Origin: Phycisphaerae bacterium
Lineage (GTDB): Bacteria; Planctomycetota; Phycisphaerae; UBA1845; PWPN01
Direction of reading: 5' to 3'
DNA length: 36,193 nt
NCBI GenBank assembly: GCA_012729395.1
Contig: JAAYDF010000341.1
Location: 1-36,193, forward strand
The position numbers were made by a program, and so were the translations under genes. The notes under the pieces are model-generated. The model did no database searches and had not been told where the DNA came from. It was given only the letters and a program-made list of their open reading frames with translations. This document shows positions 13,925 to 20,551 of this stretch, in pieces. The number at the start of each line of letters is the position of its first letter. Positions within the stretch are counted from its first letter, which is position 1.

Positions 13925-15001
13925 TTACCGCGACTTCACCGCGGTCCACACCTCGTCGTACAGTCGCGTATCGTTGCCCACGTCTTCGAGGTACTCCATC
14001 TTTCGCATCAGCTCCTGCGAGGGGTAGATGGCCTCATCCGCCCGGTCGTCGGGTTCGATCAGCGACAGGGCCGCCTCGTTGGGCGTCGCGTACCGGTTGA
14101 AGTCCGACAACTTGGCCCCCACCTCCGGCTCCAGGATGTAGTTGATGAACTGGTGGGCGGCCTCGACGTGCCTGCTGCCGGAGGTCACGGTCATCGCGTC
14201 CACCCAGATCAGCGTGCCTTCCCGCGGGACCACGAAAGCCGCGTTGGGCTCCTCCTCGATCCCACGCATCGCGTCCCCATTGTACACAATCGCCAGGACC
14301 GCATCGCCCGAGACCACCTTGTTCTTGCCGCCCACGCCGCCCTCGAACCCGAGAAAATGCCGACTCTTCTTGGCCTGCAGGATCATCTCGCCCGCCGCCT
14401 TGAGGGCCTCCGGGTCGCGGCTGTTGATCGACTCGCCCCGCAGCTTCAACGCCGCCGCCAGCATGTCGCGCATCGAGTCAATCAGCACCAACGGCCCCGG
14501 CTGCCGCTCAGCGTCAAACACCAACGCCCACGTCGGCTCGATCTCGCCCACCTTGTCCTTGCGGTACATCAGCCCCATCGTGCCCCATTGGTAGGGCAGG
14601 CTGTAACGGCTCTCCGGATCGTAGCCCGGGTTGCGGAACGGCTCGCTGATATGCTTGCGGTTGGGAATCTTCTCCGCGTCCAACGCCTGGATCAGCCCCA
14701 GCTTCGCCAGCACCGGCACCGCGTGGTCCGACACCACGACCACGTCATACTGCTCGGTCCCGCCCGCATGCTGCAGCTTGGCCATCATCTCCTCGGTCGC
14801 CTCGTACACGTCGATCCGGGCCTTGATCCCCGTCGCCTTCTCGAATTCCGCCGGGATCTCCGGGTCGATGTACTCCGACCACATGTACACGTTGATCTGC
14901 TTCGTATCCGCCGCCTGACCCCCCTCGGGCGACCGCGAGCACCCCAACCCCAAGGCCCACACCACCATAGCCGCCGACACGGTCGCCAAGAGTCGTCTCA
15001 T
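13925..15001 (-). CDS. potD: Spermidine/putrescine ABC transporter substrate-binding lipoprotein
   Basis: A 358-residue extracytoplasmic polyamine-binding protein (PotD/PotF family). The start at 15001 has AGGAG eight bases upstream and gives a signal peptide with a lipobox ending at Cys21 (ALGLGC). The family opening INVYMWSEYIDPEIPAEFEKAT is present in order, then YDVVVVSDHAV, LPYQWGTMGLMYRKD and a C-terminal MEYLEDVG..TRLYDEVWT. It should deliver substrate to the PotABC complex encoded upstream (17303-20143). It would normally be the fourth gene of that operon, but an IS110 element and repeat debris of about 2.3 kb lie between potC and potD, so its expression may now depend on a different promoter. 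Confidence 0.9.
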   Translation of the reverse strand: MRRLLATVSAAMVVWALGLGCSRSPEGGQAADTKQINVYMWSEYIDPEIPAEFEKATGIKARIDVYEATEEMMAKLQHAGGTEQYDVVVVSDHAVPVLAKLGLIQALDAEKIPNRKHISEPFRNPGYDPESRYSLPYQWGTMGLMYRKDKVGEIEPTWALVFDAERQPGPLVLIDSMRDMLAAALKLRGESINSRDPEALKAAGEMILQAKKSRHFLGFEGGVGGKNKVVSGDAVLAIVYNGDAMRGIEEEPNAAFVVPREGTLIWVDAMTVTSGSRHVEAAHQFINYILEPEVGAKLSDFNRYATPNEAALSLIEPDDRADEAIYPSQELMRKMEYLEDVGNDTRLYDEVWTAVKSR

Positions 15002-15139
15002 CGCGTCTTCTCCTGTGGATCGAAGGAACTTGCTTGTCACGATTGGCCGTTACGATAGCCCCGCCCGCTAACGAGTCAAACCCCCGCTTGCCACAGAGCC
15101 GCGCCCAACAGAGCCGCGATCGTGAGGCGTCCCGCACCG
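15002..15139. other. Gap between potD and the IS110 transposase
   Basis: This 138-bp stretch is the leader of potD and must also contain the 3' boundary of the IS element. CACCGCTATGCGGTG (15135-15149) is a small palindrome spanning the transposase stop codon. Two copies of ACAGAGCCGCG occur at about 15096 and 15110. No convincing promoter motif was found, and the exact end of the element cannot be fixed without a second copy. Confidence 0.5.
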
Positions 15140-16858
15140 CTATGCGGTGGGTGAGTCCTTGAAAAAACGCTTGACGAGGTCGCGGCGCCCTTGCGGCGTA
15201 GCCATCGGGTCAGAATTCTTCGCCGACGATGGGGGGGCCGAGGGCGTAGCCGACCCCTTGTGCCGACCGGTTGGGCCTGACGGTGACGGGAAGGTTGACG
15301 GCTTCACCGACGGCAGAGATTTGCTTGGGTCCCCAGACTTCATAAGGCTCGATTCGTTCGCCAGCGGCGACGTAGAAGCGGACGACCTCGACTTGCGAGT
15401 TGTCACGTCGGGTGATGGTTCGCTTGCTCCGGCGGACGATGTGTCCACGGAGGAACAGGCCGTCTTCCTGGGCAGGCTGGCCACCCACTTTTGCACTGCT
15501 TCGAGGCATCGCTCTCCGACTCCTGGCTCCTTCGCAAGCCCGTTCTTCCACTTGGCGTAGAGTTGCGACGTCGTCTGGACGCCGATCTTGGCCAGTGTGA
15601 TGACGAATCGACCCGGAAGGAGTCCCTCAAGGGGTCGATCATCGAACGCGTGTAATTCGTCGAGCTTGTAGCCTGCGTACGAGAATGGTTGGCCGGTCCG
15701 CTGAACATGATACAGGCCGAGGGCCACCCGCCGCGCGACCGCCGAACAAGTTTTCTTCCAGGCTCCCTTCTTGGTGCGCCCCATGAGCGATGCTCCCCAC
15801 TGACCGATGGGTTCCTTGCGCAGACGCAAGAGAGCGGCGGCTCCGAACTTGAGGGTCTGGTGCAGTCGCTTGTTACCTCCGCGACGGACGTGCTGGGTTA
15901 CCTTGCCCGCGCTGATCTTCAACGTGGGGTCACAGCCCGCGAATGCCACCGCCGCCTTGGGGCACGGGAACCGCCGCCAGTCGTAGACCTCGGCGATCCA
16001 ATGCAGGGCACACATTTCCCCCACACCGGGCACGGTACGGAGGAGCTTCTCGGCCTCATGACCCGGTAGCAGACGATCTCCGACGGGAACCTGGAGGGTC
16101 TTGAGGTATTCCCGGGCGGATGATTCGAGACCTCGGACGATCTGCTCGGCCGCATCCGCACGGTGCAATTCGAGATCCAGCAGCCAGCGAACATGTGGAG
16201 GAAGCGCGATCGGAGCAACACCGGCCGACTGGGGAAATCGCCCCGCGGCCAAGTCGTCCAGCAACGATCGGCATAACCCGCCCTTGAGACCCGTCAGAGC
16301 GACGAAGGTGTGCCCGAAGCGCAGAACGAGCCCATTGGCACGATTCATCGCCCGCACACGGGTTCGTTTCTGGTCTTCCCGTGCCCGAAGGATCAATCGG
16401 AGTACCTGGCAATCATCCGGGGCGATGAATGACTCCGGCCACAGACTACTCAGAGCATGCCTGGCCAGTGTCTTGGCGTCGAGCCGATCCGTTTTCCGCC
16501 GACCGGGGGCGGCCAGCAGCGGATTGACTACGTGCGGATGCCCCTCGAAGGCCCGAAGTACGGGATAGTGGTAACACCCCGTGCTTTCAATGGTGAATTC
16601 CAGACTGCGTTCCGTCGCCAGGCCCTGTAAGTGCCCGAGAATCCACCGCTTGGCCTCGATCAGGTCGGGCCAGTTGGTACTGAACTCGCGTTCATGGCGG
16701 TCGATCCGGGCTTCCGACCGGACCAGAACGCAGATCTGGATGAACCGGGAGTGCGTGTCGATGCCCACACCGTAGGGGTTGAGGTAAGCCTCAAGCGTTT
16801 CATCCCCGCCCGAATCGGGTGGAGAGAACGATTCTGCCTTGCGTGCTGAGCGCGACAT
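15140..16858 (-). CDS. IS110-family DEDD transposase with an aberrant C-terminal tail
   Basis: A 572-residue recombinase. The RuvC-like DEDD domain shows Asp in YGVGIDTHSRF, Glu in LEFTIESTGCYHYPV, and the two Asp in RRKTDRLDAKTLAR. The second domain (Transposase_20) has LRTVPGVGEMCALHWIAEV and the catalytic-Ser region CDPTLKISAGKVTQHVRRGG. Homology-like sequence ends near residue 455 (CLEAVQKWVAS). The last 115 or so residues are a Ser/Pro/Thr-rich, low-complexity run that is the out-of-frame reading of another ORF (15210-15509). The usual IS110 transposase is about 350-450 residues, so the tail is probably not functional. Start ATG at 16858. All catalytic residues seem present, so activity is possible. 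Confidence 0.9.
   Translation of the reverse strand: MSRSARKAESFSPPDSGGDETLEAYLNPYGVGIDTHSRFIQICVLVRSEARIDRHEREFSTNWPDLIEAKRWILGHLQGLATERSLEFTIESTGCYHYPVLRAFEGHPHVVNPLLAAPGRRKTDRLDAKTLARHALSSLWPESFIAPDDCQVLRLILRAREDQKRTRVRAMNRANGLVLRFGHTFVALTGLKGGLCRSLLDDLAAGRFPQSAGVAPIALPPHVRWLLDLELHRADAAEQIVRGLESSAREYLKTLQVPVGDRLLPGHEAEKLLRTVPGVGEMCALHWIAEVYDWRRFPCPKAAVAFAGCDPTLKISAGKVTQHVRRGGNKRLHQTLKFGAAALLRLRKEPIGQWGASLMGRTKKGAWKKTCSAVARRVALGLYHVQRTGQPFSYAGYKLDELHAFDDRPLEGLLPGRFVITLAKIGVQTTSQLYAKWKNGLAKEPGVGERCLEAVQKWVASLPRKTACSSVDTSSAGASEPSPDVTTRKSRSSASTSPLANESSLMKSGDPSKSLPSVKPSTFPSPSGPTGRHKGSATPSAPPSSAKNSDPMATPQGRRDLVKRFFKDSPTA
15210..15509 (-). CDS. Nested small ORF in the IS110 3' end, beta-rich protein
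   Basis: A 99-residue ORF lying wholly inside the transposase frame but shifted by two bases. Its ATG at 15509 has GGAG four bases upstream. The codons have strongly G/C third positions, and the product is normal-looking: alternating beta-like segments such as LFLRGHIVRRSKRT, QVEVVRFYVAAG, EAVNLPVTVRPN and a GPPIVGEEF end. The transposase frame over the same bases is Ser/Pro/Thr-rich and unprotein-like, so this frame is likely the real one here. The strand pattern and the ending in GEEF recall OB-fold single-strand-binding proteins, but I cannot identify the family. Alternatively it is a former C-terminal domain of the transposase separated by a frameshift. Confidence 0.6.
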   Translation of the reverse strand: MPRSSAKVGGQPAQEDGLFLRGHIVRRSKRTITRRDNSQVEVVRFYVAAGERIEPYEVWGPKQISAVGEAVNLPVTVRPNRSAQGVGYALGPPIVGEEF

Positions 16859-17071
16859 GACTCAACCGTAACACCCGAAGCCGCTGCCTCACGGAGTGAC
16901 CTCACAGGGTCAATCGAGAGCGTGGCGGTCTACCCAGCACAACAAGCTGGCCGCCCCGCGCTTCACGACTCCGCCGGAGCAACCCTAGAACAAGCACGTT
17001 CCTCGCGCCACTCCGGTCTATGCTGGTTCCCTGTAGTAGGTAATACGAGGGTAATGCGAAGGTAATACGAT
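16859..17071 (-). ncRNA. Candidate bridge-RNA region of the IS110 element
   Basis: IS110 elements of the IS110 subgroup carry a structured bridge RNA in the non-coding DNA upstream of the transposase; it guides donor and target recognition. This stretch upstream of the gene is non-coding and contains a good two-part hairpin at 16924-16955: GGCGG pairs with CCGCC and CCAGC with GCTGG, with a 7-base loop and a one-sided internal bulge. Internal loops of that kind are what guide loops look like. Neither the exact ends nor the guide sequences can be determined without the element termini. Confidence 0.3.
17039..17070. repeat. Three GGTAATACGA repeats at 11-bp spacing
   Basis: GGTAATACGA at 17039-17048, GGTAATGCGA at 17050-17059 and GGTAATACGA at 17061-17070 are spaced by exactly 11 bp, about one helical turn. 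They lie in the non-coding DNA upstream of the IS110 transposase. A protein-binding site within the element end is possible. Confidence 0.75.
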
Positions 17072-17104
17072 CTCTGTCTTGCATGAGTCTCCGGAGTAGC
17101 TACT

Positions 17105-17302
17105 ATGATATGTTCTTTAAGGCAGGAAGAGGTTCTTCTCGGCATTGAAGAACCGCTCCCTGACGGTCGCGGCTCTGATACGCCATGCTCTTCGCACACA
17201 TCCTCTCGGGCTCCCACAGGAATGCACAGAGGATCGCAAAGGTCGCCAAGAAGTCGAACACGCCATCTGTGTCCATCTGTGTGATCTGTGGGCCCGCAGT
17301 CC
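17105..17302. repeat. Dispersed-repeat debris downstream of potC
   Basis: This stretch between potC and the IS110 end holds no gene. Two blocks are recognisable by style. One is CCGCTCCCTGACGGTCGCGG (17154-17173), with AAGAGGTTCTTCTCGGCATTGAAG before it. The other is the run of CACAGAGGAT, CATCTGTGTCCATCTGTGTG and ATCTGTGGG at about 17225-17290, with a 9-bp internal period. Both types recur widely between genes in planctomycete genomes from general experience; that recurrence is not shown within this window. Confidence 0.5.
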
Positions 17303-18118
17303 TCAGCCCTTCGCCTCTTGCCGCGTCGACAGCCACATCAGCCGCTCCAGCCCCAGCACCAGCAGCACCGTGGCCAGGAAGATCAACGTCGACAAAGCGT
17401 GCAGCTCCGGCGTCACCCCACGCCGTACCGATGCGTAGATGAAGATCGGCAGCGTCGTCGAGTCCGGACCGGCCGTGAAGAAACTGATCACAAAGTCATC
17501 CAGCGACAAGGTGAACGCCAGCATCGCCCCAGCCACAATCCCCGGCATCAGCAGCGGCAGCATCACCCGCCGCAGCAGGTAGGGCGTATCCGCGTACAGA
17601 TCCCGGGCCGCCTCCTCCAGCGTCCGCCCGATCGTCACCAGCCGACTGTGCACCACCAACGCCACAAACGCGATCTGAAAGGTCACATGCGCGATCACCA
17701 TCGTCAGCAGCCCCGGGTTGAACGCTGCCGACACCGCCCGCAACAACCCAAACGCCACCACCAACGCTGCCGCGAAGATGATGTCCGGCGTCACCACCGG
17801 CAAATACACCGCGAAATCCAGAAACCCCCGCCACCGCCGCGGCCAAGGAAACCGAGACATCCCGATCGCCAGCACTGTCCCCAGCACCGTCGCCACCACC
17901 GTCGAGACCACCGCCAGGATTAGCGTATTCCGCGTCGCCTCCAGAACCTGGGAGTTCTGCAGCAGCCGACCGTACCACTCCAGCGTGAACCCCTTCCACC
18001 CGAACCCGTGCCGACCCGCGTTCACCGAAAACACGCCCACCGCCAGCATCGGCAGGTACAGGAACACCAGGGCCGCGTAGGCCGGCACCGTCAACCACAG
18101 CGGCTTGCCACGCCTCAT
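17303..18118 (-). CDS. potC: Polyamine ABC transporter permease, PotC type
   Basis: A 271-residue inner-membrane permease that forms the channel with PotB. It has about six helices, starting with PAYAALVFLYLPMLAVGVFSV, and the family's cytoplasmic EAA-like loop LEEAARDLYADTPYLLRRVMLP, which docks on the ATPase. The SLDDFVISFFTAGP motif is characteristic of PotC. The ATG at 18118 overlaps the potB stop as ATGA, the usual arrangement for coupled translation; a Met two codons upstream is less likely. A long open frame continuing upstream to 18775 is the shadow of potB. It is the last intact gene before the repeat and IS110 region. Confidence 0.93.
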   Translation of the reverse strand: MRRGKPLWLTVPAYAALVFLYLPMLAVGVFSVNAGRHGFGWKGFTLEWYGRLLQNSQVLEATRNTLILAVVSTVVATVLGTVLAIGMSRFPWPRRWRGFLDFAVYLPVVTPDIIFAAALVVAFGLLRAVSAAFNPGLLTMVIAHVTFQIAFVALVVHSRLVTIGRTLEEAARDLYADTPYLLRRVMLPLLMPGIVAGAMLAFTLSLDDFVISFFTAGPDSTTLPIFIYASVRRGVTPELHALSTLIFLATVLLVLGLERLMWLSTRQEAKG

Positions 18119-19104
18119 ACCCATTCCGCCCCCTCCCCGCGACGCCGTAGCCAGAACAGACCCGCCAGCGTCAGCACCATCAACGCCAGGCTCACCGCCG
18201 CCCCGAACGGCCAGTCCCGGCTCGCACCGAACTGCTGCTGAATCAGGTTGCCCACCAGCATGGTCTTCGCCCCGCCCAGCATGTCCGGCACCACGAACAC
18301 CCCCATCGCCGGTATGAACGTCAGAATCACCGCCACCGTCAGCCCCGGAAACGTCTGCGGCAGGATCGCCTGAAAGAAAATCCGCCGCTTCGAGGCGTAC
18401 AGATCCTCCGCCGCTTCCACGATCGACCAGTCCAGCCGCTCCACGCTCGTGTACAACGGCAGCGTCGCGAACGGCAGAAAACTGCTCACCATGCCCACGT
18501 ACACCGCCCACACGCTCGGATACAGCGACGTCTCCGCCCGGATCAGCCCCAGCAGATGCGCCAGCCGGGCGAAGGGCATGTGCTGCGAGAAAAGCAGCAT
18601 CCACGCGTAGGTGCGGATGACCATGTTCGTGCAGAAGGGAATGACCACCAGCGCCAGCCACAGATAGCGACGCCGCGGCGGACGCGACGCGATGAAGAAC
18701 GCCAGCGGATACGACACGACCACCGCGAAGACCGTGGTCACCAGCGCGACCCACACGCTCCGCCCCAGGATCCACAAGTAGTCCGCCGACCAGTCAAACA
18801 GCCCGAACCCCAGCAACCGCCGGAAGTTCTCCAGCGTGAACGACCACCGGATCTCGCCGTAAGCCCCACGCTCCGCAAACCCCACCGCCACCAGCGCCGC
18901 CGATGGCAGAATCAGGAACCCCACCAGCCACGCCATCGGGACCAGAATGAACGCCACCCCTCGCAGCGACAACCGCCGCTGCGTGGTTAACTCGCCATAC
19001 CAGATCAACAGACGTGAAACCCCGCCCCCTCGCCGCCGCGCACCGCCGCCCGACCCGTGCTCGGGGATCGGGCTCTCGCCACGCTGCTCGGGGGATTCAA
19101 TCAC
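18115..19104 (-). CDS. potB: Polyamine ABC transporter permease, PotB type
   Basis: A 329-residue permease, partner of PotC. Helices begin with GVAFILVPMAWLVGFLILP. The periplasmic part includes FTLENFRRLLGF, and the conserved coupling loop is VEAAEDLYASKRRIFFQAILP. The segment VVVIPFCTNMVIRTYAWMLL is the classical PotB/PotH block. The GTG at 19104 overlaps the potA stop in GTGATTGA, which fits the tight operon; a later start near VSRLLIWYGE would remove about 30 poorly conserved residues and is possible. No good Shine-Dalgarno is seen, so translation is probably coupled to potA. Confidence 0.9.
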   Translation of the reverse strand: MIESPEQRGESPIPEHGSGGGARRRGGGVSRLLIWYGELTTQRRLSLRGVAFILVPMAWLVGFLILPSAALVAVGFAERGAYGEIRWSFTLENFRRLLGFGLFDWSADYLWILGRSVWVALVTTVFAVVVSYPLAFFIASRPPRRRYLWLALVVIPFCTNMVIRTYAWMLLFSQHMPFARLAHLLGLIRAETSLYPSVWAVYVGMVSSFLPFATLPLYTSVERLDWSIVEAAEDLYASKRRIFFQAILPQTFPGLTVAVILTFIPAMGVFVVPDMLGGAKTMLVGNLIQQQFGASRDWPFGAAVSLALMVLTLAGLFWLRRRGEGAEWV

Positions 19105-20143
19105 TGAGAGGTACCAGGTATTCCGGCTCCAGTGCCAGCCAGATCGTCGCTCCCGCCCGCAGGTCGGCTCGCGGGGCCGTCCGCACCCGCAACGCACCAG
19201 GCTCCACGAACAGATCCATGTGGTCGCCCCGGTAGATCACCTCGCGAACGCGGGCGCTCACCCCGTTCATCCCCGGCCGCCGCGAGCAGACGCGGATCCG
19301 CTCCGGCCGGATCGCCAGCGTGCCCCGAGACCAGCCCGGCGACCCGCTCACCGACAGCGGCCCGTGGATCGTCTCCACGTGACCGTTGACCCGCGAGCCC
19401 GAGATCAGATTCGCCGAGCCCAGGAACTCCGCTACGAACCGGCTCACCGGACGCTCGTAGACCTCGGCCGGCGTCCCGCTCTGCACAATCCTGCCGTCCG
19501 ACATCACCAGTACACGGTCGGACACCGTCATCGCCTCGTCCTGATCGTGCGTCACCAGGATGAACGTCTTGCCCAGCCGCCGCTGCAGCCGCCGAAGCTC
19601 GATCTGCACCTCCGCCCGCAGCTTCGCGTCCAGGGCTGACATCGGCTCATCCAGCAGCAGCAACTCCGGCTCGTTGACCAACGCCCGGGCTAGCGCGACG
19701 CGTTGCTTCTGCCCGCCCGATAACTGGTGCGGGTACCGGCCGACCAGCGACTCCATCTGCAGAATCTGCAACGCGACGCCGACTCGCTCCGCCACCGCCG
19801 ACTCCGAAAACCGCCGCGAACGCAGCCCGAAGGCAATGTTCTCACGCACGCTCAGATGGGGAAACAGGGCGTAGTTCTGAAAAACCGTGTTCACGGGTCG
19901 CCGGTTGGCCGGGATACCCGTCATCTCGCGGCCGTCCAGCATGACCCGCCCCCGGTCCGCCAGCTCCAGCCCCGCCAAAATCCGCAGCAGCGTCGTCTTG
20001 CCGCACCCCGACGGGCCCAGCAAGGTCACAAACTCGCCGCTCGACACCTCAAAACCGATGTCCGTCAGTACCTGCACCTCGCCGAAAGACTTGCACACCC
20101 CCTCGACACATAAGGCGGAACGCGTCTCGGCGAAGGTGGCCAT
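19097..20143 (-). CDS. potA: Polyamine ABC transporter ATPase
   Basis: A 348-residue ATPase that powers the PotBC channel. Walker A GPSGCGKT is at residues 43-50, then FQNYALFPHLSVRENI (Q-loop), the signature LSGGQKQRVALARALV, Walker B LLLLDEPMSALD and an H-loop in LVTHDQDEAMT. The C-terminal TOBE domain (LAIRPERIRV, VIYRGDHMDLFVE) is typical of PotA/UgpC/MalK. The start at 20143 (MATFAETRSAL) is where family similarity begins; an open frame reaches 20284 with no protein-like content. First gene of the pot operon, with about 1.2 kb of repeat-rich non-coding DNA before it. Confidence 0.94.
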   Translation of the reverse strand: MATFAETRSALCVEGVCKSFGEVQVLTDIGFEVSSGEFVTLLGPSGCGKTTLLRILAGLELADRGRVMLDGREMTGIPANRRPVNTVFQNYALFPHLSVRENIAFGLRSRRFSESAVAERVGVALQILQMESLVGRYPHQLSGGQKQRVALARALVNEPELLLLDEPMSALDAKLRAEVQIELRRLQRRLGKTFILVTHDQDEAMTVSDRVLVMSDGRIVQSGTPAEVYERPVSRFVAEFLGSANLISGSRVNGHVETIHGPLSVSGSPGWSRGTLAIRPERIRVCSRRPGMNGVSARVREVIYRGDHMDLFVEPGALRVRTAPRADLRAGATIWLALEPEYLVPLSD

Positions 20144-20551
20144 GCCCGCGACGATGCTGTCCGCCGTGGCAGGCCTCAGATTGTGGTCGGCCGGAAAACT
20201 CTTGAGGAACCGCAGGCCGGACGCGAACCCCTTGCGGAGCCGGTCTGCGGCAGGTGAAGCGGACTCAGCGGAAGGTCTGTCCAACTCGCGTATAGATCCT
20301 TTCGGTTTGTGTGCACGCCGCCCGCCAGGGGCACATCCCGCGTGGCTTGACCATGGGTGAATCCTTCCACCCGCCTTCGCCCCATGCTCGGCAACGCTCC
20401 ACGCTTAGCCGTGACGCCAGACGCTCCCGTACGGTGAACACCTCAGAAGCTCCCGTACGGCAAAAGCAACACCAAGATAGGAAACCACACGCCGACGATC
20501 AAGACTAATCTGTCTCCAAAGCTCGCCCGCCCGCACTTTTTTTTCCGCCAG

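What the first reader, a model, noticed from the sequence alone, without database searches (positions are those of the whole stretch)
15210..15509. Hidden gene inside the 3' end of an IS110 transposase, in another frame
Over these 300 bases the transposase frame is Ser/Pro/Thr-rich and unprotein-like, while the frame shifted by two has G/C third positions, a Shine-Dalgarno (GGAG) at its ATG and normal beta-rich content ending in GEEF. Either the element carries a nested accessory protein, possibly an OB-fold nucleic-acid-binding protein, or a frameshift separated a C-terminal domain from the transposase. Accessory proteins in single-gene IS110 elements are rarely reported.
Basis: partly seen in the sequence, partly recalled or inferred. 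Interest (0 to 1): 0.62.

Follow-up and report, generated by a model that had tools for sequence, protein, structure and literature searches.

The report
Second coding frame inside an IS110 element
A jumping-DNA element of a type known for carrying a single gene has a second, well-supported protein-coding stretch overlapping the end of that gene in another reading frame, but no relative of this small protein was found, so its role can only be guessed.

Summary
On the minus strand the IS110 ORF (15140-16858, 572 aa) stops looking like protein at about 15475 (aa 461). From there to 15210 the frame shifted by two (N, 99 aa, ATG at 15509) carries the coding signal. N beats the transposase frame by 0.28 log units per codon; in 565 control windows of the same genome another frame wins only in four, from two ORFs, one of which was seen to run over a real neighbouring gene. 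The transposase frame there is 50% Ser/Thr/Pro and predicted disordered; it stays open by chance in about half of codon shuffles, so dual coding is not needed. The element was delimited: 1,999 bp, inserted at a CT/CCT core in a REP-like repeat pair; the rejoined flanks match an intact pair elsewhere in the genome at 68/70 bases. N belongs to the element. Best reading: a recombinase of about 461 aa plus a small overlapping second gene. A frameshift-detached C-terminal domain is the main rival. No homologue of N was found, and the nearest transposases (25-32% identical) lack both the tail and N, so the decisive comparison could not be made. The OB-fold is neither shown nor excluded.

The parts
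15128..17126 (-). Whole IS110-group element, 1,999 bp (or 15125-17123; the AGG/CCT at both edges leaves 3 bases of ambiguity)
   Evidence: Rejoined flanks are 68/70 identical, without gaps, to an intact REP-like pair on another contig
16859..17123 (-). Left non-coding end, 265 nt, expected place of the bridge RNA
   Evidence: Length and position fit the IS110 group (PMC11208160); folding not above shuffles (z 0.02); a 7-nt stretch complementary to core plus right target, weak
15476..16858 (-). Recombinase, real part, about 461 aa: IS110 domains (aa 31-394) plus a helical tail (about aa 399-461) weakly like the RNA polymerase alpha C-terminal domain
   Evidence: NF033542 E 5e-48; Pfam PF01548, PF02371; helices to aa 461; codon change point 15475; PF03118 E 0.08, below cut-off
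15140..15475 (-). S/T/P-rich readthrough of the transposase frame, probably not a selected protein sequence
   Evidence: 49.5% S/T/P, codon score in the lowest 0.2% of true-gene windows; mostly coil
15210..15509 (-). N: second coding frame, 99 aa, ATG start with SD-like motifs upstream, stop at 15210-15212
   Evidence: Codon likelihood, composition and change point
15128..15209 (-). Right non-coding end if N is the last gene (82 nt); holds an inverted repeat CACCGC-ATA-GCGGTG in which the 572-aa frame happens to stop
   Evidence: Sequence and element boundary

Best explanation
The element is an IS110-group insertion sequence that encodes a recombinase of about 461 aa and, overlapping its last 35 bases or so, a second small gene (N, 99 aa) in another frame, started from its own ATG at 15509. 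The 572-aa transposase ORF is a readthrough: its stop after the tail helix was lost or never existed, and the high G+C keeps that frame open across N by chance. Shown: N carries the coding signal, the transposase frame does not beyond about 15475, and N lies inside a delimited element. Inferred: N is translated by internal initiation as a separate protein. Guess: N is a small beta-rich protein that binds single-stranded DNA or RNA and assists the recombinase, its guide RNA or the circular intermediate.
For: Codon model: N -3.93 vs -4.21, with another frame winning only in 4 of 565 control windows, 3 of them over a real neighbouring gene. Change point 15475 = aa 461 coincides with the end of the predicted helical tail. 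Tail composition is abnormal, N's is normal. Element boundaries enclose N. ATG with SD-like motifs lies about 34 nt before the change point. A 461-aa recombinase is at the upper end of the published range of 300-460 aa, a fusion of about 550 aa would exceed it (PMC11208160). The transposase frame stays open over N in 53% of codon shuffles.
Against: No homologue of N found, so no conservation evidence. The SD-like motifs coincide with codons for a Gly-Val-Gly-Glu turn. The transposase has no stop near N's start, unlike usual overlapping gene pairs. A single-sequence model of N is of low confidence. A single copy in one draft genome.
Confidence: 0.5

Rival explanations
1. Frameshifted fusion: N is the C-terminal domain of a longer recombinase (about 550 aa) and was separated from it by one indel near 15475, in this copy or in its assembly.
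For: The coding signal passes from one frame to the other at a single point with little or no overlap (best point 15475, within about 2 log units from 15493 to 15460); the transposase lacks a stop near N's start; the open readthrough is expected by chance (0.53).
Against: IS110 recombinases are reported as 300-460 aa (PMC11208160); none of the nearest relatives has such a domain; an ATG with SD-like motifs stands just before the switch; the rest of the ORF is intact.
Confidence: 0.33
2. Chance: N is a fortuitously open frame, and the transposase simply has a low-complexity, disordered C-terminal tail.
For: No homologue of N; at least one alternative forward frame is open in 173 of 565 control windows.
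Against: Being open is not enough: outside two over-extended ORFs no control window has an alternative frame scoring above the true one. The S/T/P tail lies outside the genome's composition range and occurs in none of the related transposases.
Confidence: 0.08
3. Programmed -1 frameshifting yields a recombinase-N fusion beside the 572-aa product.
For: The frame relation is the one a -1 shift gives.
Against: No X-XXY-YYZ slippery heptamer in the transposase frame between 15640 and 15430, only GCAAAAG near 15496; the zero frame runs on for over 330 nt instead of stopping soon.
Confidence: 0.04
4. The real gene is antisense (15147-15560, plus strand, 137 aa) and N is its mirror image.
For: The mirror frame is open and scores only 0.05 per codon below N.
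Against: Mirror frames of true genes behave this way, including along the transposase itself (-0.035 to -0.23); the product is unusually acidic (22% D/E, 7% K/R); no Pfam match.
Confidence: 0.05

Closest known systems
IS110-group insertion sequences that insert into REP palindromes (IS621, ISPpu9, ISPpu10, ISPa11)
   Same: DEDD plus Transposase_20 recombinase, long left and short right non-coding end, no long terminal inverted repeats found, CT-containing core, insertion inside a REP-like repeat
   Different: Recombinase only 25-32% identical to its nearest relatives found; extra helical tail; a second coding frame N overlapping its end
Insertion sequences with overlapping accessory genes (IS21 istA/istB, IS66 tnpA/B/C; from general knowledge)
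   Same: Two or more protein genes in tandem, with short overlaps
   Different: Different transposase families; no sequence relation of N to their accessory proteins was found; here the first frame has no stop near the second start
Small OB-fold single-strand-binding proteins (SSB, PriB, RPA domains)
   Same: Size, beta-rich prediction and a short acidic end finishing in Phe (GEEF), a resemblance by eye
   Different: No sequence match; structural matches insignificant (Foldseek best E 0.51; OB-fold 3dm3 E 2.1; OB-folds Z 2.6-2.8 among unrelated rows up to 3.9)

Membership tests
IS110 family element | DEDD_Tnp_IS110 and Transposase_20 domains in the recombinase | tested here: met
   PF01548 E 6e-11, PF02371 E 2e-13; NF033542 164 bits against a cut-off of 140
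IS110 family element | Catalytic acidic residues and conserved serine | tested here: met
   Motifs GIDTHS (32), IESTG (90), TDRLDAK (123), KISAGK (314) present; assignment to the active site is from family knowledge, not from an alignment to a structure
IS110 family element | Site-specific insertion at a short core shared by both edges; IS110-group layout with left end longer than right end | tested here: met
   CCT/AGG at both edges, empty site 68/70 identical to an intact repeat pair; left end 265 nt, right end 12 or 82 nt
IS110 family element | Bridge RNA in the left end | tested here: inconclusive
   Folding no better than shuffles; one 7-nt stretch complementary to core plus right target; no relatives for covariation
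OB-fold / SSB-like protein (for N) | Five-stranded OB barrel | tested here: inconclusive
   Model confidence too low (pLDDT 50.8); weak matches only
OB-fold / SSB-like protein (for N) | Match to a known family profile | tested here: not met
   No family in Pfam or PHROGs at E <= 1, none relevant in NCBIfam
Programmed -1 frameshift IS | Slippery heptamer at the junction followed closely by a zero-frame stop | tested here: not met
   No such heptamer in 15430-15640; zero frame open to 15140

The most novel reading that the evidence does not exclude
A two-gene IS110 element: an RNA-guided recombinase with an added helical tail, plus a co-encoded, overlapping small nucleic-acid-binding protein that assists bridge-RNA-guided recombination or protects its intermediates.
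Probability: 0.2. Interest if true: 0.65.

Novelty: new variant of a known kind. Interest (0 to 1): 0.42.

Why it matters
IS110 recombinases are the RNA-guided enzymes behind bridge-RNA editing and are described as minimal elements with one recombinase of 300-460 aa. An element-encoded partner protein, or an added domain, would be a lead for how that reaction is regulated or improved. It also shows how a gene caller can hide a second gene: the 572-aa call here conceals the frame that carries the coding signal.

Tried and rejected
Homologues of N: own genome, 298 class and 392 phylum genomes, 114 order genomes at E<=1, genome contigs, plasmids, phages, viral contigs, PDB by sequence, Pfam, PHROGs, NCBIfam. 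The best hits (E 0.002-0.009) and several weaker ones were read; they lie in stretches of other genes, mostly out of frame or antisense, or in unrelated proteins, hence chance. Closer transposases: class, order, phylum, a second class, genome contigs, viral contigs, plasmids, phages: none above about 25-32% identity, none with the tail or N (60). Structural comparison of the N model gave noise-level matches. Rfam gave nothing near its cut-offs. DNA search of the element against plasmids: nothing. Literature searches found no report of a second gene in an IS110 element, but the library is open-access only. The first idea that the open transposase frame itself implies selection was dropped, because it stays open in 53% of codon shuffles.

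Full report
What is there. The minus strand carries an IS110 recombinase ORF, 15140-16858, 572 aa. The IS110 profile covers aa 31-391 with E 5e-48, and the acidic and serine motifs are present.

Is N more than chance? A codon model was trained on 83 genes from 177 kb of the same genome. Between 15509 and 15210 the transposase frame scores -4.21 per codon and N -3.93; true genes score -3.80 +/- 0.11 and the transposase's own windows -3.85 to -4.02. In 565 control windows of 300 nt the best other forward frame lies on average 0.52 below the true one. It wins in only four. Three of these are in ORF 17305-18775, whose over-extended start runs over potB, so the test correctly flagged a real gene in another frame; the fourth, at the very start of an ORF on L051, was not examined further. 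G+C at third positions alone does not separate the two frames. The transposase frame there is 49.5% Ser/Thr/Pro and 10% hydrophobic, both outside the range of the genome's genes, while N is average. The mirror antisense frame is the one alternative that codon usage separates only weakly (difference 0.05). I regard it as N's shadow, because the transposase's own windows show the same effect.

Where does the transposase end? The best change point is 15475, within about two log units between 15493 and 15460. That is transposase residue 461. Structure prediction of aa 389-572 gives helices up to aa 461, then coil apart from one short helix near the end. The helical part weakly resembles the RNA polymerase alpha C-terminal domain (E 0.08, below the cut-off). 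The nearest transposases found lack this tail; where they extend past the IS110 domain they end near position 430. So the real protein seems to end at about residue 461, where N takes over. In codon shuffles of N the transposase frame stays open 53% of the time, so its long extension needs no selection.

Is N part of the element? The genome holds 166 copies of a REP-like palindrome, often in inverted pairs. The element interrupts one. Joining the two flanks at a CCT core gives a 70-nt site identical at 68 positions, without gaps, to an intact pair on another contig. This fixes the element at 1,999 bp (15128-17126, with three bases of ambiguity). The left non-coding end is 265 nt, the right end 82 nt after N's stop. 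This is the layout of the IS110 group, several members of which insert into REP sequences (PMC11208160; PMC1525189). N is inside the element. A bridge RNA is expected in the left end but was not demonstrated: no stability above shuffles, and one 7-nt stretch complementary to core plus right target.

What is N? No homologue was found (see Tried and rejected). The single-sequence model has mean pLDDT 50.8, with three strands at residues 23-60 near 70; structural matches are at noise level. A small beta-rich protein is plausible; an OB-fold is possible but unproven. The acidic end with a final Phe recalls the tips of SSB proteins, by eye only.

Mechanism. Most likely N is a second gene whose start overlaps the end of the recombinase gene, with SD-like motifs upstream of its ATG, and the recombinase stop was lost or never existed. 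The main rival is a fusion broken by one indel. The published length range of IS110 recombinases (300-460 aa, PMC11208160) favours a 461-aa protein plus a separate gene over a fusion of about 550 aa, but only relatives can decide and none were in reach. Programmed frameshifting lacks a slippery site and a nearby stop.

Verdict. A real second coding frame in an IS110 element, confidence about 0.85; a separate gene, about 0.5; function no more than a guess at nucleic-acid binding. It would interest the bridge-RNA field if relatives turn up; for now it is a single orphan copy in one draft genome.

Noticed in passing
17153-17176, 15109-15127 and 166 places in the genome: A REP-like palindrome (AGAGCCGCGAYCGTNAGGGAGCGG, up to 2 mismatches), often in inverted pairs about 40 nt apart, occurs 166 times in this genome; the IS110 element is inserted in one pair. 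The transposase that spreads these repeats was not looked for.
   Followed up: partly
13925-20284: The element sits inside a polyamine-type transporter operon (ATPase, two permeases, then the binding protein), between the second permease and the binding-protein gene, on the same strand; it may uncouple the last gene.
   Followed up: no
15476-15664 (minus strand): The recombinase has a helical tail (about aa 399-461) weakly like the RNA polymerase alpha C-terminal domain, not seen in the nearest relatives.
   Followed up: partly
15128-15150: The right end of the element carries an inverted repeat CACCGC-ATA-GCGGTG next to the core; the 572-aa frame stops inside it.
   Followed up: no
17038-17090: Short direct repeats AGGTAATACGA (17038 and 17060) in the left non-coding end of the element, with a similar copy between them.
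   Followed up: no
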